Assembly: GCA_947167765.1 (NCBI GenBank)
Contig: CAMVJI010000003.1
Location: forward strand, 1 to 64,000
Length of the DNA stretch: 64,000 nt
Direction of reading: 5' to 3'
Source of the DNA: an uncultured Butyrivibrio sp.
Lineage (GTDB): Bacteria; Bacillota; Clostridia; Lachnospirales; Lachnospiraceae
The notes under the pieces were generated by a model, which had not been told where the DNA came from, did no database searches, and saw only the letters and a program-made list of their open reading frames with translations. The position numbers and the translations under genes are program-made. Position 1 is the first letter of the stretch; each line of letters begins with the position of its first letter. Below, piece by piece: positions 10,236 through 36,183 of this stretch.

Positions 10236-10238
10236 TTT

Positions 10239-10423
10239 GTGCATTGCCCTAGTGGGCGTCAGTATTATTTCTACATAATATTCATAACAATTAAAGTAAG
10301 TTAAAGGAGGAGTGTCAATGCCCTAGTGGGCGTCAGTATCATTTCTACGGAAGAATGATGAAACTTGTAAAAGTAGCAACAAAAATGTGTCAATGCCCTA
10401 GTGGGCGTCAGTATCATTTCTAC
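10239..10423 (-). CRISPR. CRISPR array A: 3 repeats, 2 spacers; variant repeat GTGTCAATGCCCTAGTGGGCGTCAGTATCATTTCTAC
   Basis: Repeats 10239-10274 (degenerate), 10312-10348, 10387-10423; leader on the right, so transcribed on minus. Confidence 0.95.
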
Positions 10424-12905: not shown

Positions 12906-13667
12906 TTAAGATTTAACCTCAGATAGTAATCCATATCCAACGTGAGTTTTTGCGCCCACTCCGAAATCACATATTATTGTTCTGAACAGGTTCTTTTGCT
13001 CCTCAGAATTTATCAATGCATTCTTAGCTGGGATAAACCTAAACTCAAAAATCACTTCTGGATTAATCCTTATCATAGTGATTGGATTAGGCTCCTGAAG
13101 GGGTGAACCATTATGCGGAGTAATACTATCTGTCCCCAAATATCGCATCCCGCATCTTTTTGTTCCGCCAATAATATATGAGTCCAAAAACCTTGCTTGG
13201 TTCTTTAAAACGCTTTCTCCCATTCTACCAAACAACTGCGTTTCCAATTTCTTTACATCAATGTTGTCATCCTCCAGCACTTCTTTAATATACTCAGGAT
13301 AACTAAATGCATTTCTTAATAGACCTTTCAGTGAACTGCCTGGAAGATATGGTAGCCCAGTAACATAATCAAAGGTAAATCCTAGCTCCATTTCTCCTTT
13401 AGCCCCTGAAGAATGAGTGTTACCGGTACCTATTAGTGTACCTGGATACTCTGTTTTTAATTGTATAGTCTCAAAACTAGTACCATTCAGAGTTTTGACA
13501 CAAACATCGGCATTAAGAGCTTTTGAAACTGAATCATTCATAGCCTTAATCGCTTCTCTGTTAATCATAGCCATATCGCTATTATTCACAGCATCTTTCA
13601 AATATGAAACATTGAAAATATAGTTAGCGTTAGCTTTACAATAAGGCATTATATTTATTCCTTTCAT
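12906..13667 (-). CDS. cmr6: Type III-B CRISPR RAMP protein Cmr6
   Basis: GLPYLPGSSLKGLLRNAFSYPEYI and GVGAKTHVGYGLL. Confidence 0.9.
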   Translation of the reverse strand: MKGINIMPYCKANANYIFNVSYLKDAVNNSDMAMINREAIKAMNDSVSKALNADVCVKTLNGTSFETIQLKTEYPGTLIGTGNTHSSGAKGEMELGFTFDYVTGLPYLPGSSLKGLLRNAFSYPEYIKEVLEDDNIDVKKLETQLFGRMGESVLKNQARFLDSYIIGGTKRCGMRYLGTDSITPHNGSPLQEPNPITMIRINPEVIFEFRFIPAKNALINSEEQKNLFRTIICDFGVGAKTHVGYGLLSEVKS

Positions 13668-14044
13668 TTTTCTATCCTTTCAAACAAGTCACATGCCATT
13701 TTAAATGCTGCCGCTGCATTTAGTAATTCATCCTTTGAAAACTTAGCATCCTCAAAATACTTTACAATCTCCTGTGAAGAGCATTTATTTTTTTTAGGGT
13801 CGATTGTAATTCCACTTAACAATTCATAAATACAGGCAACCACAGTATCTTTATTAGTTTCCGAATTTGCGCTCCAAAATCCGCTTATTGCAGAACGATC
13901 CGTGCCCATTATTACAGCCGCACCAAATGAAGAAAATGCACTCCGATATTTCTTGTCAATCTTTCCTTCATGCGTCAGCAAACTCTTATTTAGTATTTCA
14001 TAAGCCTTATCAATTTTGTCTTCAACCCATTCTTTATCGTTCAT
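13664..14044 (-). CDS. cmr5: Type III-B CRISPR protein Cmr5
   Basis: Small helical protein between cmr4 and cmr6; YRSAFSSFGAAVIMGTDRSAISGFWSA. Confidence 0.85.
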   Translation of the reverse strand: MNDKEWVEDKIDKAYEILNKSLLTHEGKIDKKYRSAFSSFGAAVIMGTDRSAISGFWSANSETNKDTVVACIYELLSGITIDPKKNKCSSQEIVKYFEDAKFSKDELLNAAAAFKMACDLFERIEK

Positions 14045-14055
14045 ATCGCCACCTT

Positions 14056-14910
14056 TTATTGATACTCATTTAATAGGACTAATCCATCTCCAATAGTTGC
14101 ATCCCCTCCAAGCTGAACAAGATTTTTTCCACGTATCTGATTTACAAGTTCATCAAGAAGACCACCATTATCACTCATTATTGAAAACCAAAATATGCTC
14201 TCATGTGGAACAAACTCTTCATACCACAAATTTTTGCTTTCACTATTAACAAGCTTGTTTCTTGCCATAACTGGTAGATACTTGATTCTTTCAGTGAAGT
14301 CTTCTTCATCAAGTATAACCATCGGAATATTCAGCGGAATTCCGGCTTTAGTCAAGACATCCCGTATACCAACAGGTATTTCACCCGGTAAATCATTGTT
14401 TTTATTTAACGGGATACCTTCAACAGCTTTTACATCTCCATGAACATAGGAATTTGAAGCTTGTAACGCTTCAATAGATGTCTTTATTTCTGATGTTCTT
14501 CCCAACACTTCCATGAAAGAAGAAAACTGTTGCAAAGCAGTTTTCGTAGTAACCATCGCATAAGGGCATCCCCCATCAGATACTCTCATCGGAATAGCAA
14601 GAAGCTGAGCTGCTGTGAACTTTCCTTTACCTGGCACACTACGTGTTTTTACCTTATCATCTGACTTGCCTTGAGTTTCATCTTGTTTAATTGGCTCTGA
14701 TCCAAAAAATGGAACAAGTTCACTTATCAGCCTTTCATCCTCTAATGAGAAGTGTTCACGAAGCGCCCCTTTTATTCCAGAAGCAAACACCGTTGGATAT
14801 CCGGTTACAGGATCTCTCTGAACCTGTTTATCTACCACATTGTAGTTAGCATCACCACTTCCAGCATGAATGTTAGTCACACATTTCATAAAATATATTT
14901 TAGAATCCAT
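14056..14910 (-). CDS. cmr4: Type III-B CRISPR RAMP protein Cmr4
   Basis: NIHAGSGDANYNVVDKQVQRDPVTGYPTVFASGIKGALREHF. Confidence 0.95.
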   Translation of the reverse strand: MDSKIYFMKCVTNIHAGSGDANYNVVDKQVQRDPVTGYPTVFASGIKGALREHFSLEDERLISELVPFFGSEPIKQDETQGKSDDKVKTRSVPGKGKFTAAQLLAIPMRVSDGGCPYAMVTTKTALQQFSSFMEVLGRTSEIKTSIEALQASNSYVHGDVKAVEGIPLNKNNDLPGEIPVGIRDVLTKAGIPLNIPMVILDEEDFTERIKYLPVMARNKLVNSESKNLWYEEFVPHESIFWFSIMSDNGGLLDELVNQIRGKNLVQLGGDATIGDGLVLLNEYQ

Positions 14911-14913
14911 TAC

Positions 14914-16011
14914 TTATTCTCCTTTTACTGTCCAAATGTCATTAAAGCCCCATTGTGATAAAGCATCTGAATAACACTCTTTCAATCTATCTCCATTGTC
15001 GTTTACAAAGAAAACACTTCCTGCATTTACAAGATAATGTAGCGAACTCTTTTTTAACCTATCAAAATAATTGTCCTTTTTACTTGTGTCCGTGGTCATA
15101 TATCTGAAGTTCCTAAGTGATGTAATAGCATAAGCCACAGAATCTGAATAGTCGCTTTCAAAAAATACATCAGAAGCTGCATACAGCATCGAATACCCCA
15201 TGGGAATACGACCTTTCAAAGCGTTTTTCATCTCTTCATGAAATGAATCAGAATTTATATCCTTTTCTTCAAGTTTGACAGCTTTTACATAAAACGATGA
15301 TTTATCCTGTCCCATTTGGACAATGTCCGTTTTCTCAAAAGCATCCACCGATTCATCTACTTCTACTAGGCAGCAGAAACTCCAGTCATTCTGATCTCTC
15401 TTCAAAAATTTGTACTCTTTTTTAAAAAGAGCGTCATCTCCGCCATTTTTTAAAATCCCAGTTTTAACTACAGAATCAAAAATATGTGAGTCCTTAACAC
15501 AATCCCCCCCAGCATTCATCCAACCATTGAAAAGGCCTTTCTTTGAATCGTATTCTTTATCGTTTGGCAACACAAAGTAATGTCCTGCAAACTCACCTAC
15601 TTTTTCCATTTCCATGAATGCTATCTTTGAATCTTTATTAACCTTGGCATTTCGTGGGCATCTGTAATACTCATCTATTCCATCAAAGAGATGCAGCGGC
15701 CCTATCTTCTTTATCATTCCAAATGAATTATCTCCGTGTAAATCAAAGCTCTTTTCTCCAACAAGTCCATTATTCTCGTAAAATCCTTTTTCATCTGGTT
15801 TAGATTCTTTGTTGTTTTTTAGTACAAAATATCTGATAGTACCAATAATGGTTGACTGTGAAGGAAGAAGTCCGGAACGAATAAAGTATGAATTACTTTC
15901 AGCACTACTTTCTTCTGGTTTTGCATAATTATTGAATCCCATATTCTTTTCTTCGCCAAAGAAATAAGGTTCAATAGGAGTAAATATTACCCGATACGCT
16001 TTATTGCTCAA
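14914..16011 (-). CDS. cmr3: Type III-B CRISPR protein Cmr3
   Basis: RVIFTPIEPYFFGEEKNMGF...SGLLPSQSTIIGTIRYFVL; position in operon. Confidence 0.85.
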   Translation of the reverse strand: MSNKAYRVIFTPIEPYFFGEEKNMGFNNYAKPEESSAESNSYFIRSGLLPSQSTIIGTIRYFVLKNNKESKPDEKGFYENNGLVGEKSFDLHGDNSFGMIKKIGPLHLFDGIDEYYRCPRNAKVNKDSKIAFMEMEKVGEFAGHYFVLPNDKEYDSKKGLFNGWMNAGGDCVKDSHIFDSVVKTGILKNGGDDALFKKEYKFLKRDQNDWSFCCLVEVDESVDAFEKTDIVQMGQDKSSFYVKAVKLEEKDINSDSFHEEMKNALKGRIPMGYSMLYAASDVFFESDYSDSVAYAITSLRNFRYMTTDTSKKDNYFDRLKKSSLHYLVNAGSVFFVNDNGDRLKECYSDALSQWGFNDIWTVKGE

Positions 16012-17651
16012 CGTCCCTCATCTCCTTTCTCAACAAAGAATTTGCATACTCTTAAAACAGAAGTTATACCACTAACTACAAATGCTTCATCATCAGCAGC
16101 CACATTCTTTATTCGAATCATCTCTTTACTCTTATCGCTAGCTATAGCGTCTCCTAATTTACATAGCAACGCTGTGTCCCTTTTTTGAGAATCACTGTCA
16201 AAGAAATTATCCAGAACAGTTGCCCTTTTTTCGCGAATTACTTTTCCAGACCAAATTTTAGAAATGACTCGCTTTTGATTCTCTAAAGTAAAAATGGCAC
16301 TATTGGCAAGTTCAGAAATATCTATACCATGCCTCTCTCCATCTTTACTTTCACTCTTATTGATAAAACTACGTAATACATCCAGCATCTGTTTCATGGA
16401 ACTATCATCATCCGTTCCTTGCTTTAGCACCATTTCAACCTTTTGTCCGCTAGCTTTTCTAACATCTAGTGCAATGCTGTTATAAATTCTTTTTATTATC
16501 TCGCCCTCATCTTTATCCTTATTCTCATACTTGGCCACATCAAAAAGCAAACGCTTTGCATCTTCAACCGCTTCATATAGAGGATATCTAAAATAATTAA
16601 TACTGATTCCATAGGACAAAGATGGCCCCAAATCTTCATCAGAATCCTTGACTTGTTCTTTTAAAATATCTCTTTCTTCCTTAAATGTAGAATTAAATTT
16701 ATCAGTAATATCCTGACATAAATCAAAAACAGTCTTCTCCTTATTTCTCAGAGGTGCTAAGAAAAGAAGATCATCACCTCCAGCATAAATAGTTATCCCA
16801 CCATATTGATTAATTAACTTGGCACTTTCACTGGTATACTCCAAACAATGCCTAGAAAACTCCTTCTGTCTTTCTTCTGGCGATATACCTTCGAATTCAT
16901 TTCCCAACGTCTCTACAACCGTTCCCATATGATCACCATCCGCATAAACAACCGCAAAATAATTGGAAATCTTATAATCGGATATCGAACCATCACCTTG
17001 TGCTATACTTTCAATTTCTTTAATTGCACCAGATTTTTTAGTAAGTACTTTACTAATTCCAGCAAATCCTCCAGACATTTCTGTCGGATTAACTAGTGAG
17101 CATTCTTTGTATTTTTTTACACGTTCATTACTACTAAGAACAGATGAAATGAAACGTGCGTTACCAGATGGCCTTACCGATTCCATCAGTTCTAACACGT
17201 CCAGTTTAGACGACAAAGTTTTAAGAGCATTATTATCAGCGATTTCCGAAACGCCGATACACCTGATATATATGTACTTATTGATGTAATCAATCACATC
17301 TGCTTCGCTTTTATCAAGACATTTTGCAATTTCAATGGCCCTTAGTCTTTTTATCTCAAGAAAGGTATCTTCCAGTTTTTTTTCGAAGGCATCCTCTTCA
17401 TTTCCAAAATAGATGAAGATAATGCGATCATGATATCTTCCGATGCCATCATCTTTTCCTTTTGTCTCATCGCCATTTTCAAAGTAGGGAGAGATGATCG
17501 TTACTTTCTTACTATCTATATCAAGGATCTCCTTACACAAATCTCTGGTGATGCAGGAAAAGAAATAACTAGCCATCCACAATCCTGCCGGCTTAGTAAC
17601 ACTACTTATAGTTTCATGTATAGGACCTACTGTGATACCATAGTACCTCAT
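16008..17651 (-). CDS. cas10: Type III-B Cas10/Cmr2 with GGDD palm motif
   Basis: VVYADGDHMGTVVE and ITIYAGGDDLLFLAPL; no obvious N-terminal HD. Confidence 0.93.
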   Translation of the reverse strand: MRYYGITVGPIHETISSVTKPAGLWMASYFFSCITRDLCKEILDIDSKKVTIISPYFENGDETKGKDDGIGRYHDRIIFIYFGNEEDAFEKKLEDTFLEIKRLRAIEIAKCLDKSEADVIDYINKYIYIRCIGVSEIADNNALKTLSSKLDVLELMESVRPSGNARFISSVLSSNERVKKYKECSLVNPTEMSGGFAGISKVLTKKSGAIKEIESIAQGDGSISDYKISNYFAVVYADGDHMGTVVETLGNEFEGISPEERQKEFSRHCLEYTSESAKLINQYGGITIYAGGDDLLFLAPLRNKEKTVFDLCQDITDKFNSTFKEERDILKEQVKDSDEDLGPSLSYGISINYFRYPLYEAVEDAKRLLFDVAKYENKDKDEGEIIKRIYNSIALDVRKASGQKVEMVLKQGTDDDSSMKQMLDVLRSFINKSESKDGERHGIDISELANSAIFTLENQKRVISKIWSGKVIREKRATVLDNFFDSDSQKRDTALLCKLGDAIASDKSKEMIRIKNVAADDEAFVVSGITSVLRVCKFFVEKGDEGR

Positions 17652-19237
17652 GTCGGTTTATCCTCCTTATTTGATGCTTCTACTCTAACTATCTTGTAAT
17701 CTTTTTGTTTAATCCTACAAAAATCGGAGCTTTTTACTGTTTTAAATTTCTTTTTAATTGGGTCACGATTTTCAGAAGGATTATCATTATCATTAAAATC
17801 CTTCATGAATCCATCAAGGAATTTTTCCATTTCAAATGAGTCAGGAGTTTTTATTTTTTCGGTTTTTTCTAAGACATTTCCCTTATCTTTTCCCTTATCT
17901 TTAATCTTCTTTCCTTCCATAGTAAAAACACTTCCAAGAAGCTTATCATCAACCTTTCCTGGCAAAATAAAAATGTGATTTGGTAAGACCTTAAACACTA
18001 TCGGAGAGGGAACTCTTTGGATTTCCTCGTTATCCGCATGTATACAAATATTTCCCTCTTTGTACACCTGTCTATCATCCTTTTTAAAAGGTTTTCTAAA
18101 TGATATTGTATCTGGCACTCCTAAAAAAGCACGTACATATCGATACTTATCATTGTCATATCGTTCATCATTCAATACGTGATCTTCGCTTTCTTTATTC
18201 ACATCCTGAGAATTTTTAAAGAAAGTTCTTTTCATAAAAGCCTTATCGTTCCGCGGAACCTTTCCATTTTCTTTTTTTCCACCATCCTCAGAATAGTATT
18301 TCCCATCTGAAAAGAAATAACGATATATGTAGCCTTTAAAATAGTCTCCCTTAGAGTTATACCCGCCTTTCATCAACGAATATATTAGCCATATATCATT
18401 TAGCTGTTGCTCAACAATATTCTGCTTTGGGTTACATTCACGACTTTGAGCATTATATCTTCTGTCTATTTTGTAAATTGTTCCGCCTAAAGCATTGGCA
18501 ATTTCTTCAGGTGTAGGTTCCTCTAATTTCTTACCATCAACCTTAACCACATAGAAGCTACCGAGGCCTTTATCTGAACGAGTACCAAAATTATTAATCA
18601 AAAAGAAATTGGAAATGTGTTTCTTTACATTCGAAAGAAGTTCTGTGTTCATTGTAAAAACTGTTAACGTTATTTCTGATTCGTAAAGAATCCCCTCCTT
18701 AAATAGCTCCATTATGTTTTGACATTTGTCCCATCCAGAGCCAGAAGCCATATTCCCAAAATATGACTTAGGATTGCTAATGGTCCCTACATATTTAGAT
18801 GTATTGTTTGGATTTATATTGGATTCGATTTCACTGACAAGCTTATCGGCTTTCTTTTTATCGTTATCATTAAGTTTTCCGGGTTTTTCGGGGGTTCCTA
18901 TTAAAGCTTTAATGCCTTTTTTTCTATACGATGATATTTTAACTCTTGGGTTCTCACCAACTGAAATAGTCATCCTATAGTTAAGAGCATGAACTTTTTC
19001 GTCATCAGGTTTGATAAACCATCCCTTATGTTCCGCTTTAAAGTTCTTTAGTTTTTCATCATAATCTTCTTTATTCTCGAATTTGTTCCTGAGGATAAAT
19101 TCTTTGTTGAAGATGTATTTATCTAATCTCGGTTTCACGTCAGATGCTCTTAAACATGCTCCAAAATCATCGTATTGAAAATGAATCATAGGTGTTACCT
19201 GTTTAAGTGTAACCACACATTTGAATTTGCTATCCAT
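17648..19237 (-). CDS. cmr1: Type III-B CRISPR RAMP protein Cmr1
   Basis: LKQVTPMIHFQYDDFGACLRASDVKPRLDKYI; RAMP-like FGTRSDKGLGSFYV. Confidence 0.85.
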   Translation of the reverse strand: MDSKFKCVVTLKQVTPMIHFQYDDFGACLRASDVKPRLDKYIFNKEFILRNKFENKEDYDEKLKNFKAEHKGWFIKPDDEKVHALNYRMTISVGENPRVKISSYRKKGIKALIGTPEKPGKLNDNDKKKADKLVSEIESNINPNNTSKYVGTISNPKSYFGNMASGSGWDKCQNIMELFKEGILYESEITLTVFTMNTELLSNVKKHISNFFLINNFGTRSDKGLGSFYVVKVDGKKLEEPTPEEIANALGGTIYKIDRRYNAQSRECNPKQNIVEQQLNDIWLIYSLMKGGYNSKGDYFKGYIYRYFFSDGKYYSEDGGKKENGKVPRNDKAFMKRTFFKNSQDVNKESEDHVLNDERYDNDKYRYVRAFLGVPDTISFRKPFKKDDRQVYKEGNICIHADNEEIQRVPSPIVFKVLPNHIFILPGKVDDKLLGSVFTMEGKKIKDKGKDKGNVLEKTEKIKTPDSFEMEKFLDGFMKDFNDNDNPSENRDPIKKKFKTVKSSDFCRIKQKDYKIVRVEASNKEDKPT

Positions 19238-19300: not shown

Positions 19301-19807
19301 TCACTCGAAGTATTCATTTGCAGCTTTCACCAGACCATACAGCCCATTAAAATCTCTCCTGTATGCCTTCCAGCTACTTGCAAAGCCAGGTATTATGCTG
19401 TCTATATAATCTACATCCCTAAAAAGCCAGTTGTAATAAAACTCTGTGGTAGAATTATTCTTTTTTCTCCACCAAATAAACATATCAACAATCATCATGC
19501 TTCTTTTGACTGCTTTTATCTTTTCTTCTAACTTATCTGGCTTCTCCAAAGATTTATTTGAGTTTTCTAATTTCTCAATTTGATTATTTAACTCTTTTAT
19601 TTCTCTCTCATGGTCTTCTTTCAATTTATTGATTTCATCAACTTTGTCAGTGAGAGCCTCAAGGATCATATTAAGATTTTCATCATAGTCCTCATCTTTG
19701 GAAATCTTTTTTATCAGATCAAAAGCCTTAGGCTCATTTTTTAATTCATTTTTCAAATCAGCGTAAGCTTTTAAATAGTTTTCAACAACATCTTTTGACA
19801 TCATCAT
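19301..19807 (-). CDS. Uncharacterised coiled-coil protein in the type III-B operon
   Basis: 168 aa, central coiled coil, overlaps the upstream gene by 4 nt. Confidence 0.6.
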   Translation of the reverse strand: MMMSKDVVENYLKAYADLKNELKNEPKAFDLIKKISKDEDYDENLNMILEALTDKVDEINKLKEDHEREIKELNNQIEKLENSNKSLEKPDKLEEKIKAVKRSMMIVDMFIWWRKKNNSTTEFYYNWLFRDVDYIDSIIPGFASSWKAYRRDFNGLYGLVKAANEYFE

Positions 19808-21438
19808 TTCCTCCTGTTACGCCATTTTGCTCTTATTCCAATAGCAAAGCACCACACAATTACCAATAATACAAATGTCCACATAAAACCATCCTTTGGA
19901 CTGAAATTAAATGCGCTGCCACTAATGGCCCTGTCTATTACTATCACTTCTGATGCGAAGAGAAAATTGTAAATAAATGAAGCTATAGCCAGGATAATCG
20001 ATACATATGTAAGTATTTCAACACTTGTATTCACTGAAATATTAAGATCTGTATCCGTGATTTCATACAGACTGGTAAGATTAGCATTGAGTTTTTCTTC
20101 TTCACTCTCTATCAAAAAAGCCTCTTTTAGCATGTCATACATTTCTATGGCCTGCTGTTCGGATGAAACTTCGGAAAAAAGTAACTGACTGTCAAATGCA
20201 GCATGCCTTTCCTGTAGATTCATGATATTTCTAATATCATCTCTTTTTAGCTTTCTTCCATTAGCTGCAAAGTGTCTTGCAATATCCGCAGTTTCACGAT
20301 TAAACTTGACAATGCTAGCCTTCTGAACAATTGCAATGTAGACCATCTGAAGATAGCAGCTAATAAAGTTTTCATATAAGAAGTTCATCTCACCACCAAT
20401 AGCTGCTGAAGAAACCATTCCCATCCCCATAGGAGTTATTGTATAGAGCGAGCCCCATGGTATCCATCTTTTATACAATGCCTTGTTTATCAAATCCAGG
20501 CACATAACCTCATCCGGACACGTGCATGATCCTGAGCTATCAGCATAAGCTATCTCATATATACTTTTTCTTAATACATCCTCTGTTTCAAAATTATAGT
20601 GTTTGCTTGCACTATCAAACTTAACAGAATTAATCCACGCCTCATCACTTACAGCGAAAGCCACATACATTCTGTCATCCAAAGCTGGCTTAATACATAT
20701 CTCCTTTTCATTTTCTACCTGCTTTGATGTGAATCGGTACTCACTTCCAAAAGATAATATTTTCTTTATGAAATCACATGTATGTTCCAGGGAAATATCA
20801 TTTGGAGAATACTCCTTTTTTTCATAGACTTTTTCTATGAATCCCTTAAAATCATCTTTGACTGTTTGAACATTTGGTATGTCCACTATAAGTTTATCTG
20901 CACTAATATTTGTCTTATTGTTAATAAATGGAAGCGTTATTCTTCTTCCATAATCATTAATGTTTTTTACAACTTCAATTCCGGTCTGCTCTCCTCCCTT
21001 CCCATCTTTTCCCTGATTTTCGCATTCCATTATAAAAAGTCCCACACCAGTATTTACCAGCCTTACCCTAATAGCATTTATGTTCAATACATAGTGTTTG
21101 TCTTTTTTTATTATCTGATAGGTTCCGTTATTCCTAGATCCTTTAAGAAGATAGTTCGAACAAATATCATCTTCATATCCCAGAAAGGATTTCCTTACAT
21201 ATGGATAATAGTACTGATACTGTTTGTAAAATCCCAAAGCCTCATCTAGACTGCCTGTCTCCTGATTACTTGAAATATCATCAACGTTCTTTAGGTTTGT
21301 ATTCTCCCATTGCTGATTGTCTTCAAACACTCTTTTTAGAGCCTCATACTCCTTATCAGATGTCACTCCGTACATGTTCCACGTAAAGGGTAGGATAAAA
21401 GTATGATAACTATATACTTTCGTTGTTTCCTCAGCCAT
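19804..21438 (-). CDS. CorA-like membrane protein, candidate type III signalling effector
   Basis: Large soluble N-terminus; C-terminal DTDLNISVNTSVEILTYVSIILAIASFIYNFLF + second TM, CorA-like topology; in the Cmr operon. Confidence 0.6.
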   Translation of the reverse strand: MAEETTKVYSYHTFILPFTWNMYGVTSDKEYEALKRVFEDNQQWENTNLKNVDDISSNQETGSLDEALGFYKQYQYYYPYVRKSFLGYEDDICSNYLLKGSRNNGTYQIIKKDKHYVLNINAIRVRLVNTGVGLFIMECENQGKDGKGGEQTGIEVVKNINDYGRRITLPFINNKTNISADKLIVDIPNVQTVKDDFKGFIEKVYEKKEYSPNDISLEHTCDFIKKILSFGSEYRFTSKQVENEKEICIKPALDDRMYVAFAVSDEAWINSVKFDSASKHYNFETEDVLRKSIYEIAYADSSGSCTCPDEVMCLDLINKALYKRWIPWGSLYTITPMGMGMVSSAAIGGEMNFLYENFISCYLQMVYIAIVQKASIVKFNRETADIARHFAANGRKLKRDDIRNIMNLQERHAAFDSQLLFSEVSSEQQAIEMYDMLKEAFLIESEEEKLNANLTSLYEITDTDLNISVNTSVEILTYVSIILAIASFIYNFLFASEVIVIDRAISGSAFNFSPKDGFMWTFVLLVIVWCFAIGIRAKWRNRRK

Positions 21439-21439
21439 A

Positions 21440-21970
21440 TCAGATTTCTCCTTTAAGTTTTTTCCAAATCCGGATGCTCATCCGAACATCATCAAACGAG
21501 TTGTGAAGTCTAAGATCACTGCAATCTACTATTGTTCTTCGCTCTACCCTAGGTGAATATCCCTTTACATATAACATGCTGCTCAGATCCATCAAGGGAA
21601 ATGGGGCTTTAAATTCACGTTCCTTGATAGCATTCTCAACTGCCTTAATGAAAAGCCTGGCTTCCACAGGAACAGGAACATCTGCTATAACATCGTAATC
21701 TGCATATTCTCTGTAAAAAGAGTAGAAAGCTTCTATAAGCTCTTTTTCAGAATCATAATAATCATCATCTGAGCGAACCGAATCTTTAAGATATGGTAAA
21801 ACATTATCCTTCACCCACGGGACACTCACATACTTTTCTGGATTTTTGATAGTTCCATAATAATCCGCAATTTCTTTTCCCGTATCATCTAGCACGATTG
21901 CTGCCACAGATAAAAAGTTGCCGTAAAGGCCGTCTGTTTCCGCATCTACAAAAAAAGTTCCCATTATCAA
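21440..21970 (-). CDS. DEDDh-like 3'-5' exonuclease-fold protein
   Basis: FFVDAETDGLYG (DxE) and C-terminal LHNSFDDVRMSIRIW (HxxxxD). Confidence 0.65.
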   Translation of the reverse strand: MIMGTFFVDAETDGLYGNFLSVAAIVLDDTGKEIADYYGTIKNPEKYVSVPWVKDNVLPYLKDSVRSDDDYYDSEKELIEAFYSFYREYADYDVIADVPVPVEARLFIKAVENAIKEREFKAPFPLMDLSSMLYVKGYSPRVERRTIVDCSDLRLHNSFDDVRMSIRIWKKLKGEI

Positions 21971-21982
21971 TTGCTCCTTCTA

Positions 21983-22927
21983 TCAGGAAATCCTGTATCT
22001 TCCAAATCCAAAGCTGGTATTCTTACCTACGTGGATAAGTTCTCCTGCTATAAGCATTTCAAGTAGTTCCTCACTAACTTCTTTCAATGCCAGCTCTCCC
22101 TCTATGCCTTCAAGTCTCATGGCATCTTGCTTGTGATTAGAGTACCTACGCACACTGACTTTCTTATGGCTTTCATGTAGTACTGTAGGAATCACAATAG
22201 ACCTAACGTAATCTAATTCATGTATGTCACTAGATATCCCCTCAAAGCAGTCAAGCATATATATCCTTCTGCATAATGCTTCTATCAGGGCATCCGGCCT
22301 AAATTCACTGAGGTTTTCTCCTCTGTATTTGATTGTAAGTGGAGTTTTAAATACGATTTTAATTTGGTCCTCAGAACTTAGTTTTTCTTTTCTGTAACTA
22401 ACGTAATCAGAAACCTTACGTGTCCTGTACTCATTCATACGGAGCTCATCATGCTGAAATATAAATGCTCCTTCAGTATTTGTTACAGCAACTATCGAAT
22501 ACTGACTCTTTTCTTTACCTAAGCCAGCTTGTCCAAGCATATAAAATGCGTTGAGAAACTGTTTGAAATACACGATTGTCTTTCCAAAAAGGATCAGATT
22601 AAACTGCATCCTGTCACCAGCGCCAAAGTGATCATGATAATCTTCGCACTCCAGTACGTATCCAACACTGTCCCCTTTTGTCATAAAGCTTGGAGTAATC
22701 TCCATTTTGGAATACATGGTACGCCTGACAACACACTCAGACTCAAACTCACACTCCTCGCACACTCTATCACTTATACAGTTGGACTCTAAAAGCATCT
22801 CGCCCATCCCACCCCTGAGGGCAGAAGATTTATATACAGGTACTGTACAGTCATCAATAAATTCTATGGTGAAGTGAAGCTTAATATATCGAATATCGTA
22901 AGCCCTTTTAATATTCTCGCCTGTCAT
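21983..22927 (-). CDS. cas6: Cas6-type CRISPR RNA endoribonuclease
   Basis: SSALRGGMGEMLLE, CxxC-rich insertion, QAGLGKEKSQYSIVAV, C-terminal GKNTSFGFGRYRI. Confidence 0.85.
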   Translation of the reverse strand: MTGENIKRAYDIRYIKLHFTIEFIDDCTVPVYKSSALRGGMGEMLLESNCISDRVCEECEFESECVVRRTMYSKMEITPSFMTKGDSVGYVLECEDYHDHFGAGDRMQFNLILFGKTIVYFKQFLNAFYMLGQAGLGKEKSQYSIVAVTNTEGAFIFQHDELRMNEYRTRKVSDYVSYRKEKLSSEDQIKIVFKTPLTIKYRGENLSEFRPDALIEALCRRIYMLDCFEGISSDIHELDYVRSIVIPTVLHESHKKVSVRRYSNHKQDAMRLEGIEGELALKEVSEELLEMLIAGELIHVGKNTSFGFGRYRIS

Positions 22928-23904
22928 CTCTTGTGCGGATCTCTCTCTTCCTTCATCTTGTACATTTTCTTATCAGCTGTTTCTATGTACTCATCAAGAG
23001 TTTCCATGTTTTCTTTTGGTGGTAAAAAGACATATCCATAGCTTGCAGCTACTTGGAATGGGTTATTATGACTATCGTTGTAGGATCTAAGTTCTTCTTC
23101 AAGTGTTTTCTCAAAAGATTCCAGCGCAGTGCTGTCTGCCGCAAGAGGACAAAATACCAAAAACTCATCTCCTCCTGTTCGGATAATACTGGAGCCCTGA
23201 GGAGAAGCTTTTTTGAGAGCGTCAGATACAGCCGCTATGGCCGTATCCCCTGCACTGTGGCCAAAGGTATCGTTCATGTACTTAAGGCCATTAAGATCCA
23301 GAACACAAACAAATATGTTCTTGTTGTTATTTACTGCATCTTTCAGTGCTATAGTCTCAAAATACTTAAGGCCCTTTCTGTTATAACAGCCTGTCTGGGC
23401 ATCAGTCATATTCTCGATAAATAGTTTGTTGTACTCTTCCTTGAGCGTGCTGATAGTCTTAATAAGCTCGCTATGTTCAGTAAGAAGTGCATCTTTCTGG
23501 GTATGGATATCTTCCAAAAGGATCAGATACTCATGGCCTGTGGGACTATCCTCAATTTTCGAATTACATATAGTTATTCTTGACCAGTAATAACTCAGAT
23601 CTGTATGTCTGATACGGCATTCACAAGAAATATAGACCTTCTCAGAAAGAGTCTCATGAAGGTCGTCGATATTACTAAGAAGAGTTATACTCTCTCGGTC
23701 TTCAGGATGTGTATTCTTATATAAAGTGGAAAACAAATCATCATAGATTTTGACGCTTGAGATATCAAGAGTTTCTAGCTCTTTATTACAATCAACGGCA
23801 TGGCAGAAAAAAGTATCCTCCTCAACTAAAACAATTAGCTGATAGAGGCTCTTTATTGCATTACCTATTGAACCCTTTTTCTGTTCCGTCAGATAACGAT
23901 CCAT
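22924..23904 (-). CDS. PAS-GGDEF diguanylate cyclase in the type III-B operon
   Basis: VLDLNGLKYMNDTFGHSAGD...IIRTGGDEFLVFCPL; stop overlaps the cas6 start (ATGA). Confidence 0.9.
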   Translation of the reverse strand: MDRYLTEQKKGSIGNAIKSLYQLIVLVEEDTFFCHAVDCNKELETLDISSVKIYDDLFSTLYKNTHPEDRESITLLSNIDDLHETLSEKVYISCECRIRHTDLSYYWSRITICNSKIEDSPTGHEYLILLEDIHTQKDALLTEHSELIKTISTLKEEYNKLFIENMTDAQTGCYNRKGLKYFETIALKDAVNNNKNIFVCVLDLNGLKYMNDTFGHSAGDTAIAAVSDALKKASPQGSSIIRTGGDEFLVFCPLAADSTALESFEKTLEEELRSYNDSHNNPFQVAASYGYVFLPPKENMETLDEYIETADKKMYKMKEERDPHKR

Positions 23905-25344: not shown

Positions 25345-26130
25345 GTTTCAATAATCTAATGGGCTTTTTTTATTTTTCTACTGACAAATTTTATAAGGAG
25401 GCAAAATGAAGAAAGCGTGTATCAATGCCCTAATAGGCTTTTTTTATTTTTCTACGAACGTAATATGACGCAGACGCAGACTGCCAGCCCCGTGTATCAA
25501 TGCCCTAATGGGCTTTTTTATTTTTCTACAAGGTAGCCGAAGTAGACTTAGAGCTTGCTGAGGATATTGTATCAATGCCCTAATGGGCTTTTTTTATTTT
25601 TCTACGCGAACTGTAACCGTTTATTCAGCAACGGGTGAAGTCATGTATCAATGCCCTAATGGGCTTTTTTTATTTTTCTACCGCCTATCCTACTTATTGT
25701 GAAATGTGTCAGAAAAACGGTGTATCAATGCCCTAATGGGCTTTTTTTATTTTTCTACAAATGTAAAATTTAGTGACAATTTTATTGATTTCGTATCAAT
25801 GCCCTAATGGGCTTTTTTTATTTTTCTACTGGTTTTTATGCAAAGAGTAAACAGGCCGATTATTGTGTATCAATGCCCTAATGGGCTTTTTTTATTTTTC
25901 TACAGGAAAGACATGAAGAATCTTAGAACATTAGTTGCTGGGTATCAATGCCCTAATGGGCTTTTTTTATTTTTCTACCGTACCAGAAGGAGAGAACATG
26001 ACAAAGATTAGAACATTGTATCAATGCCCTAATGGGCTTTTTTTATTTTTCTACCCGAGATAAATGAGATGAGTCAGGTAGGTGAGAAAAAAAGTATCAA
26101 TGCCCTAATGGGCTTTTTTTATTTTTCTAC
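25345..26130 (-). CRISPR. CRISPR array B: 11 repeats (first degenerate), 10 spacers; repeat GTATCAATGCCCTAATGGGCTTTTTTTATTTTTCTAC
   Basis: Direct reading; repeats 36-37 nt, spacers 34-40 nt; degenerate repeat on left, leader on right. Confidence 0.98.
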
Positions 26131-26276
26131 AGTAGGCATTTTAGTCCTGCATGTTTACTGGAGTTCGGACGCCTCGCTCTGCATTAATTTCCAGAATATT
26201 CTGAAAATAAGCTTTTTCAAGCTCATTTTTTGTCTTTTCACAAAATAGCGCCCAAATGTTACAGAATTGTTACAGG
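26131..26276 (-). promoter_or_regulatory. Leader of CRISPR array B
   Basis: Conserved with the other three leaders; palindrome at 26192-26203. Confidence 0.9.
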
Positions 26277-26340
26277 TACTTTCCCACACCTACTAATATA
26301 TTATATCAGGGCTGTACAAATAGTACAGCCCTGAAAACTG

Positions 26341-29166
26341 TTAAATCTCAATAACCCATTCTACACCATTTTCTGTCTTTCTCCTTCTCATGATACCAAC
26401 TTCAAGTTCCAACTCATCGATTCCTTGTTTATCAAAAATATCTCCCAATTCCTTCTCGTACTTATTCACAGTTTTATCAATGCTACGCTTTTGCTTTTTC
26501 AAATCCAGGATTTTATATACGATATCCTGCGCTTTGCTATAGATATTCATCTCCGCTTTGACCTTGGTTTCATTTTCTTTTGTAAGTGTCCTACTGGATG
26601 GCAAAGTGATATCACTTTGGAGATCATCTGACAGAGAGATAGCATGAAGCACTGGCGATGGATAACAGTTCTTATTCCTTTTGAAGTTACAGCTGCACCC
26701 TATCTCTGCAGTAAGCTGTTTATACTGATCTCTAAGCTTCACACAGCTTATTGGTTTTTCGGGCATCTTCCGTATAAAACCTTCAGTGACATTAAACTTG
26801 TAATTCAACGTGAAAGACATGACTTTATGAACAAACTCTTTTCCCTCTGTTCCAAGATGCCCAAAAACATACAATATGGTGAGACGTTCAAAGTGGTTCA
26901 AGTACCCGGTCTTTACCGATTTTAGGCATAGATATCTTAGCAACCCGCATTTCATCAACACCTCCGATACTTCCGACTCCAATTCCCCAAAACAAGAAAT
27001 ATCTGTGTCCACCTCTGTTTTCTGCTGCGAACTCTGAGCCTTGGTACTCGTTGCAATCACCTTTTTTATATCAGAAAGTGCTACTTTCCCAATCGAATCC
27101 AGGGCGCTGTTGATATTAAGAATTGGCACTCCAGCTTCATCTATAAAGTAAGAGCGCTCTCCGGTTTTTCCATGTATTCCATAAGGAATCTTTATTACTT
27201 GTCCATATTTACCAGCTTTGATCCTTGTTCGATTAGGAAAGAACTCTATAGATATATCATTTGATTTTTCTAAGTCATCTTCCAAGATTTCACTCAGCAT
27301 ATTGGCATAGCGTGTTGGAATCCACTCTGTAAAGAAGAGCCATACATGATACCCTCTGTTTCCAGAGTATTCAATATATGAAGGAAAGCCCATTTTTGAA
27401 AAATGGCTCTTTATCATCTGTGCCATATCTAGCGCTTTCTGAAGATACGCCTTAAATTCATCGCTTCCTCGAGTGACCTTTAGCAGTATATTCTTACATA
27501 TATCTACATCACATACCATATATCTCACTGTGGCATTTGGGCGCTGTACATAGGAATCGATAGTCACTTTACCCATGAGATGTTCTCTAATGAAATTCTC
27601 TGTGAGCGGTCTTAAATCTGGCAACACCTTGCGAGAACTATTAGTATCAAGTTCCTCCCTTGCAAAAAGATCTTCCCTACCCACAAACAACTTAGCCATT
27701 TTTCCTACTGTATCACTCTTATAGATGATGTCACAGGCAGAACTACCAAAGTTGACCATAGCATTAAATGCTTTCTCCTGAAACGCCTTAAGTTGCTCAC
27801 ATTTATCTTGCCAGAACTCCCCCTGAGGATATAATTTCAGATCTGTGTAACTTTGCATTATGTCTATAGCAGTGTCATAGTCTTCCCTAATAATGAAACT
27901 CCTATAACTATGTAATAGTTCGTGCATCAGTTTCTTCAGCTCTTGATTATCTTGAAGTGTAACTTCGCGTTTCGGAACATGATAAAACTCTTCGTATTCA
28001 AGCAGTTCTGCCTCCCAACACTTTACCGCCCGCCAAGTATTAGCAAGATACTCTGCTATATCTCTATAAATATTTTGGACATGTGGTCTTTTTGATAGTA
28101 TTTCAGCCCTTGCTTCTTCAGCATTGCCCTTTGAATAAACCAATGCTGCAATCTCAAATATAGAACCGATTTCCCTTTCTCCTCTGAAATACTGCTCCCA
28201 ACCACCAACTATCTCTAGCACCTTCTTAAGCTTATCTTCTATACCAATATCTCCCGAAGTAAGCCACATCATTTCTAGCCTTTCATAGAGATTTGATTCT
28301 GCCTTAGCTGGAATTGCTTTCCCATTATCATCAAAATGATATCCCAGGAAATCAAAGCCCTCTGAAACATAGCCAAGCACAGATTTCTTATCATTTAGTT
28401 TTAAGCCAAGCACATCAAATCTGTTTTTGATTTCCTGCAACAGATTCATTGCTAAATTATAATCATTGCAAAGGATAACCATGTCATCTGAGTATCTTGC
28501 AAAAAAGATATCTTTGACTCCAGTCAACCAATTATCAAAATCCATCAAATATACATTTGATAGTAATGGAGCAAGACTGGATCCCTGATAAATTCCACTT
28601 CTTTTTTCAATCAATTCTCCTGTAAGCTCATCAAGACTTATTGAGCAAGAGCATTCCCTGATTAGTTCCAGGGTATCTTCTTCCTGAATAGCCACATACA
28701 GTTTTGTCCTAAGAGTATCCCACAGAATTGAATCGAAAAAGTTGGTAATATCAACTTTCAAAAACACGCTGTGTTTTCCTTCAAGTATCTTTCTACTTAG
28801 TTCTTCTACAGCAATAATAGCTGACTTGTCACTCCTATATGCATAGGTCTGACTAGAGAACTTGTTGTCAAATATCTCAGTAAGCTCGTTTGCCAAGGAT
28901 TGCTGTACAGCTTTATCTCTCATGGAATACAACGCTATCGTCCTGACCTTTTCACCCTTGTACAAATTTACAAGTTTTACCGGAAGAGATTGATACTCAT
29001 GATTTACCAATTCTTTGTTAAGCGCCTTTAATTCCTCTTTACTATTTTCAGAAAACTGATCATAAGTAACACCATCAACGCCTGCAGAAGGCTTGTTTTT
29101 TCTTACTCTATCCCAAGCTCTTTGCAAATTCTGTAAATCAATAGTTCTACTATATATGCTCATCAT
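26341..29166 (-). CDS. Reverse transcriptase fused to archaeo-eukaryotic primase-polymerase (RT-AEP, CRISPR-associated)
   Basis: RT: KPSAGVDGVTYDQF, FLKVDITNFFDSI, ARYSDDMVIL. AEP: MVCDVDICKN, IEYSGNRGYHVWLFF, IKIPYGIHGKTGERSYFID; Cys-rich C-terminal CSCNFKRNKNCYPSPVLHAI. Confidence 0.92.
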   Translation of the reverse strand: MMSIYSRTIDLQNLQRAWDRVRKNKPSAGVDGVTYDQFSENSKEELKALNKELVNHEYQSLPVKLVNLYKGEKVRTIALYSMRDKAVQQSLANELTEIFDNKFSSQTYAYRSDKSAIIAVEELSRKILEGKHSVFLKVDITNFFDSILWDTLRTKLYVAIQEEDTLELIRECSCSISLDELTGELIEKRSGIYQGSSLAPLLSNVYLMDFDNWLTGVKDIFFARYSDDMVILCNDYNLAMNLLQEIKNRFDVLGLKLNDKKSVLGYVSEGFDFLGYHFDDNGKAIPAKAESNLYERLEMMWLTSGDIGIEDKLKKVLEIVGGWEQYFRGEREIGSIFEIAALVYSKGNAEEARAEILSKRPHVQNIYRDIAEYLANTWRAVKCWEAELLEYEEFYHVPKREVTLQDNQELKKLMHELLHSYRSFIIREDYDTAIDIMQSYTDLKLYPQGEFWQDKCEQLKAFQEKAFNAMVNFGSSACDIIYKSDTVGKMAKLFVGREDLFAREELDTNSSRKVLPDLRPLTENFIREHLMGKVTIDSYVQRPNATVRYMVCDVDICKNILLKVTRGSDEFKAYLQKALDMAQMIKSHFSKMGFPSYIEYSGNRGYHVWLFFTEWIPTRYANMLSEILEDDLEKSNDISIEFFPNRTRIKAGKYGQVIKIPYGIHGKTGERSYFIDEAGVPILNINSALDSIGKVALSDIKKVIATSTKAQSSQQKTEVDTDISCFGELESEVSEVLMKCGLLRYLCLKSVKTGYLNHFERLTILYVFGHLGTEGKEFVHKVMSFTLNYKFNVTEGFIRKMPEKPISCVKLRDQYKQLTAEIGCSCNFKRNKNCYPSPVLHAISLSDDLQSDITLPSSRTLTKENETKVKAEMNIYSKAQDIVYKILDLKKQKRSIDKTVNKYEKELGDIFDKQGIDELELEVGIMRRRKTENGVEWVIEI

Positions 29167-29175
29167 TTTCTCCTT

Positions 29176-29460
29176 TCAAATAATAAATAGATCATCAAAA
29201 TCATTGGTTGATTCATCAGGCTTGCATCCAAGTTTCGCAATTTTACCAATACAGCTTTTACACAGTTGATAAAACCTGATATTTCCTTCTATTTCACCTG
29301 ACATCAATGTGGCCAGTTGCGAGTACAATTCTTCAAACTGCCCCTCAGTAATGCTACACTCAAATACACTGTACTGTACGCGAGTTCCATAATTTTCCAA
29401 CACCTTCGCTATCTTAGTTCTGGTCCTATCCTTGTCTATGTCATAACTAATCACATACAT
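29176..29460 (-). CDS. cas2: CRISPR-associated endonuclease Cas2
   Basis: MYVISYDIDKDRTRTKIAKVLENYGTRVQYSVFECSI. Confidence 0.97.
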   Translation of the reverse strand: MYVISYDIDKDRTRTKIAKVLENYGTRVQYSVFECSITEGQFEELYSQLATLMSGEIEGNIRFYQLCKSCIGKIAKLGCKPDESTNDFDDLFII

Positions 29461-30451
29461 TTCGGCACCTCCATGAATATGGAGAATATGCTTTTCCGTT
29501 TCTGATGGATCGTTTCAGTTCAGCTATCTGCTCTCTTATCACAGCGCGAAAGCTCTTTTCTCCAGAAAAAGAATTCTTCCCTGTAATCCATCGTTCGTAC
29601 TCATTACAGAATTTCTTAAATCCATCTTCAGTCAGCACAATTCTTCCATCCTCCGAATTCTCAAAATCATTTCTTCCAATCATTCTTTTGTTGAATAGTA
29701 GGAGCACTAACCTATCTACTACCGGTTGCCTAAACTCTTCAACCATATCCATAGACAAAGATTTTCTTCCATATCTTATTCCATGTAAAAATCCCAAATA
29801 AGGTTCAAAAGATTCTGCATCTAAAGCACTGGCCACTTCTTTTGTAAGTAGGGTATAAGCAAGACTGATGATGACATTGATAGGATCCTTTGGTGGTCTT
29901 CTGTTCCTCCCGTTGAACTCAAAGTCACAGTCCAGCATATGTGAAAATGATCTAAAATAGATATTGCTGCACATTCCCTCAACCCCTAGTATTTCATTTG
30001 GAGTAGCCTTTTCATGGAGCGAATTCTGTAGCAGGATCATCTGCTTTATATCCTTATCCCAGTCATATTCTGGTTTTTTTCGCCTATGTTCTCTGATAAT
30101 CTCAATCTGATTCTGTATCTTGTTTCTGACGATAATCTTAGCCATTTCCAGTCTGCGCGCTTCGTCCATATAAAACTGATACTGTTCAAATCTTAAAAAG
30201 ATATTTTTAGATGCTTCTGCAGAAGTACCTCCAAGATACTTTCCACTATAGGTCAGATAGCTCACATCCACTCCCTTCTCCATGAGCATATGGAGTGCTT
30301 GCGTAGTTATCTGAACATTTCCAATGACAGCAATGTTTTCAATTTGAAAAACCGGCATATCAAGAAACCTATTCTGATTCTTAGTAACTATGATCCGTTC
30401 GCCAACCTTTTGGACTGTAGCTCCTTGTTCTTTTACATAGATAACCGCCAT
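29447..30451 (-). CDS. cas1: CRISPR-associated endonuclease Cas1
   Basis: GVEGMCSNIYFRSF, EPYLGFLHGIRYGRKSLSMDMVEEFRQPVVDRL. Confidence 0.97.
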   Translation of the reverse strand: MAVIYVKEQGATVQKVGERIIVTKNQNRFLDMPVFQIENIAVIGNVQITTQALHMLMEKGVDVSYLTYSGKYLGGTSAEASKNIFLRFEQYQFYMDEARRLEMAKIIVRNKIQNQIEIIREHRRKKPEYDWDKDIKQMILLQNSLHEKATPNEILGVEGMCSNIYFRSFSHMLDCDFEFNGRNRRPPKDPINVIISLAYTLLTKEVASALDAESFEPYLGFLHGIRYGRKSLSMDMVEEFRQPVVDRLVLLLFNKRMIGRNDFENSEDGRIVLTEDGFKKFCNEYERWITGKNSFSGEKSFRAVIREQIAELKRSIRNGKAYSPYSWRCRNVCD

Positions 30452-30550
30452 ATACTATTTCTCCATCAAATAACTACTATCTACTCATATTTCTTAATAT
30501 CAAATCTACCTCATACTCATTTCTGTGCCTATGAACTACAAGTTTAGTAA

Positions 30551-30585
30551 AAAAGCACCTTCTGCAAATGTGCAGAAAGTGCTTT
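30551..30585 (-). terminator. Intrinsic terminator at the trailer end of array C
   Basis: Minus strand AAAAGCACTTTCTGCACATTTGCAGAAGGTGCTTTTTTA; near-identical hairpin at the array B trailer (about 25300-25332). Confidence 0.75.
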
Positions 30586-30592
30586 TAAACAT

Positions 30593-31087
30593 GTTATTCA
30601 CGCCCTAATGGGCTTTTTTTATTTTTCTACGTTCGTAAGTCAACAAAGGATCGTGGAGATATCGTGACGTATCAATGCCCTAATGGGCTTTTTTTATTTT
30701 TCTACGCTGCTATCGGTGTTGCCGTTATAGCGGTTGTTGGCCTGTATCAATGCCCTAATGGGCTTTTTTTATTTTTCTACATAAAGAAAGGAAAGAAAAA
30801 AGAAGTTACACTTGAAGACTGTATCAATGCCCTAATGGGCTTTTTTTATTTTTCTACCTAAGGAGGAAGCATAATGGATACAACACTTAAGAAAAGGTAT
30901 CAATGCCCTAATGGGCTTTTTTTATTTTTCTACCATAGACCTAGGAGGAAAGAACATGAACATTAAAAACATCGTATCAATGCCCTAATGGGCTTTTTTT
31001 ATTTTTCTACGCACCGACACGCACAGGAGGAAAACATGAGAACATTAAAAGTATCAATGCCCTAATGGGCTTTTTTTATTTTTCTAC
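30593..31087 (-). CRISPR. CRISPR array C: 7 repeats (first degenerate), 6 spacers; same repeat as array B
   Basis: Direct reading; spacers at 30631, 30706, 30781, 30858, 30934 and 31011. Confidence 0.98.
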
Positions 31088-31234: not shown

Positions 31235-31255
31235 TCTTCTTACAATATCATTATA

Positions 31256-31650
31256 TCACTTTTCCCCTTCTATTTCCGCAATATATCTCCTAAGCTGCCC
31301 TTCCCAGTCCACGTTGTCAGAGTAGTGCAGGCTTCCACGGATTCCAGGATAGGTGCTGTAGTCCTGCCTGGAGCATATCAGGATTGGTACGTCCCAGTGT
31401 TCTTTTTTAGCTATTTCAATCAGCCTGTCGCCACACATCTGCTCACCTGAGCCCCTCTCAGGTGAATACCACATGTCTGTGATAATGAGATCATAGGGAT
31501 TACCTGCTGCCAGGGCCTCTTTGAACCTAGCGATTCCATCGTCCAGGTTTCGCTCGCAGTCAATGTCAGTCACCCTGCAGTGGCATATTCTCCTGAAAGC
31601 TTCTCGCAGACCTCTATTCTCTGCTGTATTATCGGAATCAGGACATGCGC
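31256..31650 (-). pseudogene. Decayed REC-domain (response-regulator-like) gene, mosaic copy of 36184-36591
   Basis: ~280 bp nearly identical to 36184-36591 ending at CTGCAGG; upstream in another frame reads VLI-(frameshift)-DNTAENRGLREAFRRICHCRVTD. Confidence 0.7.
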
Positions 31651-35264: not shown

Positions 35265-35600
35265 CCTCCATTTTTATGTTTTTTATGGGGACATTCTGCT
35301 CCACACCCCAGATCTAGAGACCAGTGTGGGTAAATGTCTATGAAGTTTTCAAGGTACAAAAGGGCAAACAAAAAACAGGGCTATATGGGCAAACTATCCC
35401 CCAGAACAATCTGGATTCCATTTACCTATATAACTCTGTTTTTTATCTGCCTATGTAAGCAGTGTATTACATCTTATTGCTTATGGGAATAAACCTGTGG
35501 GTTAGGTGTGCAGATTTTGTACACAAAAAAGCATTCCCTATCAGGCTCCAATATCTTTTCTACAAAAACATGTTAAAAAGGAAGAAATTAAAAATGTTAT

Positions 35601-35773
35601 GTGTCAATGCCCTAATGGGCTTTTTTTATTTTTCTACGGAGCAGCCACAGGAAACTCCACAGGAGTATCAATGCCCTAATGGGCTTTTTTTATTTTTCTA
35701 CAGGTGGAGCCAGGTGCTAGGATCAGTGCTAGTTGTGTATCAATGCCCTAATGGGCTTTTTTTATTTTTCTAC
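35601..35773 (-). CRISPR. CRISPR array D: 3 repeats, 2 spacers (27 and 35 nt)
   Basis: Repeats 35601-35637, 35665-35701, 35737-35773; same repeat as arrays B and C. Confidence 0.96.
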
Positions 35774-35918: not shown

Positions 35919-36183
35919 CCTCACTCTTGTCACTAAAGTCATTATACCATTCTCTTATCAATATATCATCAATAACTATACAACTAAGATTTGCGGTCAA
36001 ACGATCATATTCGCCGTTCAAGTAAAATGCTACTTTTTCGTTATACAGTCCTCCAGTATGATAGAATACATCTTCAAGCTCCTGTTGATGTTCTGCTCTA
36101 GGCCTTCGCCATAAACTATAAGTTCAGTAAAAACAAAAAACCTCTCTCTTGCGAGAGAAGCTTTTCATTATTGGTTCGATATA

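What the first reader, a model, noticed from the sequence alone, without database searches (positions are those of the whole stretch)
25382..31050. Spacers are enriched for ribosome-binding site + start codon, all in the same orientation
Seen directly. Of 20 spacers in the four arrays, at least six contain a Shine-Dalgarno followed by ATG. Array B: tgacaaattttatAAGGAGGcaaaATGaagaaagcgt, AGGAAAGacATGaagaatcttagaac..., cgtaccAGAAGGAGagaacATGacaaagatt.... Array C: ctAAGGAGGaagcataATGgatacaac..., catagacctAGGAGGaaagaacATGaacatt..., gcaccgacacgcacAGGAGGaaaacATGagaacattaaaa. Array A adds ...gttAAAGGAGGa and GGAAGaATGATGaaacttgtaaaa. All read sense on + while the arrays are transcribed from the right-hand leader on -, so crRNAs would be antisense to translation-initiation regions. 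The three leader-proximal spacers of array C all have this form. A reverse transcriptase is encoded beside cas1/cas2, so capture from mRNA (5' ends or ribosome-protected initiation footprints) is an attractive inference. Selection for RNA targeting by the Cmr complex is the main alternative.
Basis: partly seen in the sequence, partly recalled or inferred. Interest (0 to 1): 0.92.

Follow-up and report, generated by a model that had tools for sequence, protein, structure and literature searches.

The report
CRISPR spacers antisense to gene starts
A gut-type bacterium's type III-B CRISPR system, which has a reverse transcriptase, holds an unusual number of memory sequences that match the starts of foreign messages, all facing the way needed to bind mRNA; systems without a reverse transcriptase show the same orientation and a similar, weaker surplus, so this does not show that memories are copied from mRNA.

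Summary
The window's four arrays hold 21 spacers (not 20). Six carry a Shine-Dalgarno match of at least 5 nt placed 3-12 nt before an ATG, all on the target-mRNA strand and none on the crRNA strand (about 0.95 expected from shuffles, 0.7 from even sampling of phage coding strands). The locus is a complete type III-B system with a fused RT-PrimPol (RT-CAPP) beside cas1-cas2.

The key control goes against an RT-specific reading. In 225 spacers from RT-CAPP-type arrays and 302 from RT-free type III-A arrays of the same order, sense:antisense counts are 15:0 and 19:1, and rates do not differ (6.7% vs 6.3%, p=0.86). Type I-C arrays show no strand bias (5:8). Orientation and start-site content are therefore general type III features, best explained by selection for crRNAs that pair with mRNA. 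The pooled rate matches even sampling of small-gene early phage regions (5.8%). The window is a high outlier (p about 0.002), but one such genome among 33 is expected about 5% of the time.

No protospacer was found. A separate RT-CAPP-specific mark appeared: the sense 3' base is T in 52% versus 22% in RT-free arrays (p=4e-13).

The parts
25345..26130 (-). CRISPR array B, 11 repeats, 10 spacers; repeat on crRNA strand GTAGAAAAATAAAAAAAGCCCATTAGGGCATTGATAC
30594..31087 (-). CRISPR array C, 7 repeats, 6 spacers
35565..35773 (-). CRISPR array D, 3 spacers (outermost repeat degenerate)
10238..10423 (-). CRISPR array A, 2 spacers, variant repeat
26131..26274 (-). leader of array B (conserved family, also right of arrays A, C, D)
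   Evidence: 185-nt repeat family
25382..25418 (+). spacer B1, AAGGAGG-4 nt-ATG (MKKA)
25904..25941 (+). spacer B8, AGGA-5 nt-ATG (MKNLRTLVA); 4-nt SD only
25979..26017 (+). spacer B9, AAGGAG-5 nt-ATG (MTKIRT)
30858..30896 (+). spacer C4, AAGGAGG-7 nt-ATG (MDTTLKK)
30934..30973 (+). spacer C5, AGGAGG-7 nt-ATG (MNIKNI)
31011..31050 (+). spacer C6 (newest in C), AGGAGG-5 nt-ATG (MRTLK)
35565..35600 (+). spacer D1, AAGGA-11 nt-ATG (weakest of the six)
26341..29166 (-). RT-CAPP: group II-intron-like reverse transcriptase (YSDD kept) fused to CRISPR-associated primase-polymerase A1
   Evidence: PF00078 2.5e-31, NF040561 2.8e-76
29176..29460 (-). Cas2
   Evidence: PF09827 1.6e-22
29447..30451 (-). 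Cas1
   Evidence: PF01867 7e-91
21983..22927 (-). Cas6
   Evidence: PADLOC Cas6 1.4e-67
17648..19237 (-). Cmr1
   Evidence: PADLOC 3.3e-61
16008..17651 (-). Cas10/Cmr2
   Evidence: PF22335 1.1e-26, TIGR02577
14914..16011 (-). Cmr3
   Evidence: PADLOC 3.3e-27
14056..14910 (-). Cmr4
   Evidence: PADLOC 1.1e-38
13664..14044 (-). Cmr5
   Evidence: PADLOC 4.5e-23
12906..13667 (-). Cmr6
   Evidence: PADLOC 2.5e-32
19804..21438 (-). CorA-like type III accessory membrane protein
   Evidence: PADLOC CorA 5.1e-67
21440..21970 (-). possible DEDDh-type exonuclease beside CorA (by motif only, no profile hit)
   Evidence: sequence FFVDAETDGLYGN; homologue in L055

Best explanation
This is an ordinary, complete type III-B (Cmr) CRISPR system with an RT-CAPP/Cas1/Cas2 adaptation module. 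Its spacers read sense on '+' because type III effectors act only when the crRNA pairs with a transcript, so only spacers whose crRNA is antisense to mRNA persist (orientation shown here for this locus and its relatives; the selective cause is inferred from established type III biology). Some spacers cover SD+ATG because sense-strand spacers taken from elements with short, densely packed genes often span a start site, with perhaps a mild extra preference for start regions. The window's 6/21 is a high draw from that common type III rate (about 6.5%), possibly raised by repeated sampling of related genes. The RT is not needed to explain either feature.
For: RT-free type III-A arrays of the same order show the same orientation (19 sense: 1 antisense in 302 spacers) and the same rate as RT-CAPP-type arrays (15:0 in 225; p=0.86 at SD>=5, 0.38 at SD>=6), with no RT or CAPP gene found in those III-A stretches. 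Type I-C arrays in the same genomes' relatives show 5:8, so the orientation belongs to type III and not to the scoring. A codon-usage strand classifier independently window, 182/225 RT-CAPP, 208/302 III-A and 176/315 I-C spacers sense (classifier accuracy 0.71). The sense SD+ATG rate in a small-gene early phage region is 5.8%, equal to the pooled type III rate of 34/527. Rates across 33 type III genomes are not overdispersed (chi2 34.1, 32 df). Coding-strand preference of type III spacers is published (PMC8482600), and natural type III-B spacer orientation in Marinomonas is attributed to interference rather than to acquisition (PMC5576922).
Against: The window is above the pooled type III rate (6/21 vs 34/527, p=0.0025) and stays at p about 1e-3 against the dense-gene null, so chance plus selection leaves it as an outlier. 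At SD>=6 the RT-CAPP-type set exceeds the average phage coding-strand baseline clearly (11/225, p=7e-5). No protospacer was found, so the true position relative to genes is inferred from the spacer alone.
Confidence: 0.68

Rival explanations
1. RT-dependent capture from mRNA: RT-CAPP copies mRNA fragments from 5' ends or initiating-ribosome footprints into cDNA, and Cas1-Cas2 inserts them in a fixed orientation.
For: Active-site motifs of RT are kept. Purified RT-CAPP and RT-Cas1 prime cDNA on RNA, and this feeds integration in vitro (PMC10415136). RT-CAPP arrays have an end mark (sense 3' T, 127/246 vs 66/302 in RT-free arrays, p=4e-13), so their prespacer making differs. Orientation is already complete in the newest spacers. 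The window is a high outlier.
Against: RT-free III-A arrays match RT-CAPP arrays in orientation and in start-site rate. RT-Cas1 fusion arrays from the same family show only 1/44. In Marinomonas RT-driven acquisition gives almost no orientation preference (PMC5576922). SD+ATG spacers start anywhere from -29 to -9 relative to the ATG, with no fixed footprint edge.
Confidence: 0.12
2. Selection or acquisition favouring translation-initiation regions in type III systems generally (accessible, unstructured RNA at the ribosome-binding site, or displaced coding-strand DNA near transcript starts), with or without RT.
For: Both RT-CAPP and RT-free III-A exceed the average coding-strand baseline at SD>=6 (p=7e-5 and 0.003). 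A review reports that RT-free S. thermophilus III-A acquires preferentially 10-50 bp downstream of start codons on the coding strand (PMC9048733). Newest spacers carry more SD+ATG than older ones (19/137 vs 21/411, Fisher p=0.001).
Against: The pooled excess disappears if targets are small-gene early regions. The newest-spacer effect is not significant under within-array permutation (p=0.06-0.30), and the cut was chosen after seeing the data.
Confidence: 0.17
3. Chance or scoring artefact: AG-rich spacers produce SD-like motifs.
For: Window spacers are purine-rich (0.64 vs 0.55 in coding strands).
Against: Dinucleotide shuffles give 0.95 where 6 are seen, and 0.23 where 5 are seen at SD>=6.
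Confidence: 0.03

Closest known systems
CRISPR-associated RT fused to primase-polymerase (CART-CAPP / CAPP-RT, e.g. Caloramator australicus), PMC10415136 and PMC8211822
   Same: Same domain order RT then PrimPol, adjacent to cas1 and cas2 in a type III locus; NF040561 PrimPol model matched above cut-off
   Different: Lachnospiraceae version; the published RT domain prefers to prime with G on CC templates, while here the crRNA-strand first spacer base tends to be A
RT-Cas1 type III-B adaptation, Marinomonas mediterranea MMB-1 (PMC5576922, PMC11014452)
   Same: RT-equipped type III-B system; spacers useful only when antisense to mRNA
   Different: RT here is fused to a PrimPol and is separate from Cas1; Marinomonas adds mostly A at the RNA 3' end, whereas here the sense 3' base tends to be T
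RT-free type III-A of Streptococcus thermophilus (Zhang 2021, as summarised in PMC9048733)
   Same: Coding-strand preference and enrichment close to start codons without any RT
   Different: Measured on newly acquired host-derived spacers by experiment; here natural spacers without known targets
Coding-strand bias of natural type III spacers (PMC8482600)
   Same: Same orientation bias
   Different: The bias here is close to complete in SD+ATG spacers (40:1 over all type III arrays tested) versus about 2:1 reported overall

Membership tests
Type III-B CRISPR-Cas | Cas10/Cmr2 plus Cmr1, Cmr3-6 and Cas6 | tested here: met
Type III-B CRISPR-Cas | CRISPR arrays with own Cas1-Cas2 | tested here: met
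RT-CAPP (CART-CAPP) adaptation module | RT domain fused to CAPP PrimPol next to cas1/cas2 | tested here: met
   same gene order in L045-L057
RT-CAPP (CART-CAPP) adaptation module | RT catalytic motif intact | tested here: met
   RYSDD conserved in all four aligned members; activity not tested
RNA-derived spacer acquisition | start-site/sense enrichment depends on RT (absent from RT-free type III) | tested here: not met
   RT-CAPP 15/225 vs RT-free III-A 19/302, p=0.86
RNA-derived spacer acquisition | spacers span splice junctions or RNA-only targets, or RT-dependence in vivo | not testable with these tools
   no protospacers found; needs an acquisition assay
RNA-derived spacer acquisition (RT-Cas1 type) | non-templated nucleotides, mostly A, at the RNA 3' end | tested here: inconclusive
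   RT-CAPP spacers have an end bias, but towards T on the sense strand; templated or not cannot be told without protospacers

The most novel reading that the evidence does not exclude
RT-CAPP copies the initiation regions of invader mRNAs (free 5' ends or ribosome-held fragments) into cDNA and inserts them directionally, so that the arrays are a record of translated invader genes; the sense 3' T / crRNA 5' A mark is the trace of how cDNA synthesis starts or of the RNA end that is used.
Probability: 0.1. Interest if true: 0.85.

Novelty: new member of a known kind. Interest (0 to 1): 0.42.

Why it matters
If start-region capture by RT-CAPP were shown, natural arrays could be read as records of which invader messages were being translated. 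The control here shows how easily orientation and start-site content mislead: RT-free systems give the same pattern. The terminal-base mark that does separate RT-CAPP arrays from RT-free ones is a sharper and testable handle on how RT-CAPP makes prespacers.

Tried and rejected
Protospacers: concatenated window spacers against phages, plasmids, own genome and, with some of the relatives' spacers, 397 Lachnospiraceae genomes; 92 relatives' spacers against phages; eight pattern scans of IMG/VR, four of them codon-degenerate for one spacer peptide. Nothing above chance; the 22-nt matches do not extend. Self-targeting: none found (the genome is 79% complete). A shared target gene behind B8, B9 and C6 (all have AGAACATT after the ATG): similarity is not above background in an all-pairs test, so kept only as a possibility. 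Newest-spacer enrichment of SD+ATG: lost under within-array permutation. First repeat pattern for a genome search was mis-spaced and found nothing (corrected). GGDEF gene next to cas6 as a system component: not conserved in relatives.

Full report
What is there. The window (contig C3 of a 2.95-Mb Lachnospiraceae-family draft genome, 79% complete) carries a complete type III-B locus on the minus strand: cmr6-cmr5-cmr4-cmr3-cas10-cmr1, a CorA-like gene, cas6, then, separated by arrays, RT-CAPP, cas2 and cas1. RT-CAPP (26341-29166) is a 941-aa fusion of a group II-intron-like reverse transcriptase and a CRISPR-associated primase-polymerase. Four arrays with 21 spacers lie at 10238-10423, 25345-26130, 30594-31087 and 35565-35773, each with the same leader on its right, so crRNAs are read from the minus strand.

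Check of the observation. Scoring a Shine-Dalgarno match (at least 5 nt of AAGGAGGTG) 3-12 nt before ATG gives B1, B9, C4, C5, C6 and D1 on the plus strand; B8 is added with a 4-nt match. None is found on the crRNA strand. Dinucleotide shuffles of the same spacers give 0.95 (0.23 for matches of at least 6 nt, where 5 are seen). Even sampling of the coding strand of two Firmicute phages gives 0.7, p=6e-5. In the densest early block of one phage the rate is 5.8%, which gives 1.2 expected and p about 1e-3.

The control. RT-CAPP relatives were found in 397 family genomes and in the GTDB contigs; Cas1 and Cas10 searches gave RT-free type III-A and type I-C loci of the same order. Arrays were extracted with a script and oriented by the repeat's conserved 3' end. 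Final sets: RT-CAPP repeat type 225 spacers, 15 sense and 0 antisense; RT-free III-A 302 spacers, 19 and 1; type I-C 315 spacers, 5 and 8; window 21, 6 and 0. RT-CAPP and RT-free III-A do not differ (p=0.86; at SD>=6 11/225 vs 10/302, p=0.38). No RT or CAPP gene was found by tblastn in the III-A stretches; an RT elsewhere in those genomes is not excluded. A few arrays in the RT-CAPP set share the repeat type but come from contigs without the RT (L160, L114, L165). A codon-based strand classifier agrees on orientation (20/21, 182/225, 208/302, 176/315).

Reading. Type III immunity needs a crRNA that pairs with a transcript, and a coding-strand bias of natural type III spacers is published (PMC8482600). 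In the RT-equipped Marinomonas III-B system, acquisition itself is nearly unoriented (PMC5576922). The simplest account is therefore selection for mRNA pairing, with start sites hit as often as short-gene targets would give. The pooled rate (34/527, 6.5%) is above the average phage coding-strand rate (3.5%, p=0.0006) but not above the small-gene early rate. Whether there is a mild general preference for start regions is open; an RT-free system with such a preference has been reported (PMC9048733). The window's 6/21 is high against the pooled rate (p=0.0025), but the 33 genomes together are not overdispersed, and this window was picked because it looked striking. The span of the six to seven spacers relative to the ATG (starts -29 to -9) shows no fixed edge such as a 5' end or a footprint would leave.

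What does separate RT-CAPP arrays. The last base of the spacer on the sense strand (the first spacer base on the crRNA strand, complemented) is T in 127 of 246 window plus RT-CAPP spacers, against 66 of 302 in RT-free III-A (p=4e-13). It is partial in most arrays, so it is not a misplaced repeat boundary. It may be a PAM-like choice, an RNA end cut after U, the base with which cDNA synthesis starts, or an added nucleotide; published RT-CAPP priming in vitro prefers G on CC templates, which does not match. This was found after looking at the data, though at a strength that survives any reasonable correction.

Limits. No protospacer was found in any collection, so gene position is inferred from the spacers alone. 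Target gene density is unknown and decides whether the pooled start-site rate is an excess. Repeat-based orientation rests on the conserved repeat end, supported in the window by the leaders.

Noticed in passing
all four arrays; relatives L047-L057, L193-L202: RT-CAPP-type arrays have T as the last sense base of the spacer in 52% (A as first base on the crRNA strand), 22% in RT-free III-A arrays (p=4e-13).
   Followed up: partly
22924-23904: A GGDEF (diguanylate cyclase-like) gene overlaps the start of cas6 by 4 bp, as if co-translated; not conserved beside cas6 in relatives.
   Followed up: partly
19804-21970: CorA-like protein with a small gene resembling a DEDDh exonuclease; both have homologues in L055, with a 744-aa TPR-weak protein (10629-12863) also shared.
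   Followed up: no
31252-31551 and 36180-36479: A 300-nt stretch repeated at 94% identity, each copy just beyond the leader of arrays C and D, suggests segmental duplication of array plus flank.
   Followed up: no
window locus versus genus: None of the 15 or so same-genus genomes listed has a Cas10 palm match at E<=1e-12, so the system was probably gained horizontally; PcfJ-like (31701-33518) and T4SS coupling-protein (36667-38079) genes lie beside it.
   Followed up: no
L050 spacers 0.1 and 0.5; L121 and L130 array pairs: Pairs of non-identical spacers in one genome cover the same short stretch of a related target, in L050 the start of a gene encoding MITLTI.
   Followed up: partly
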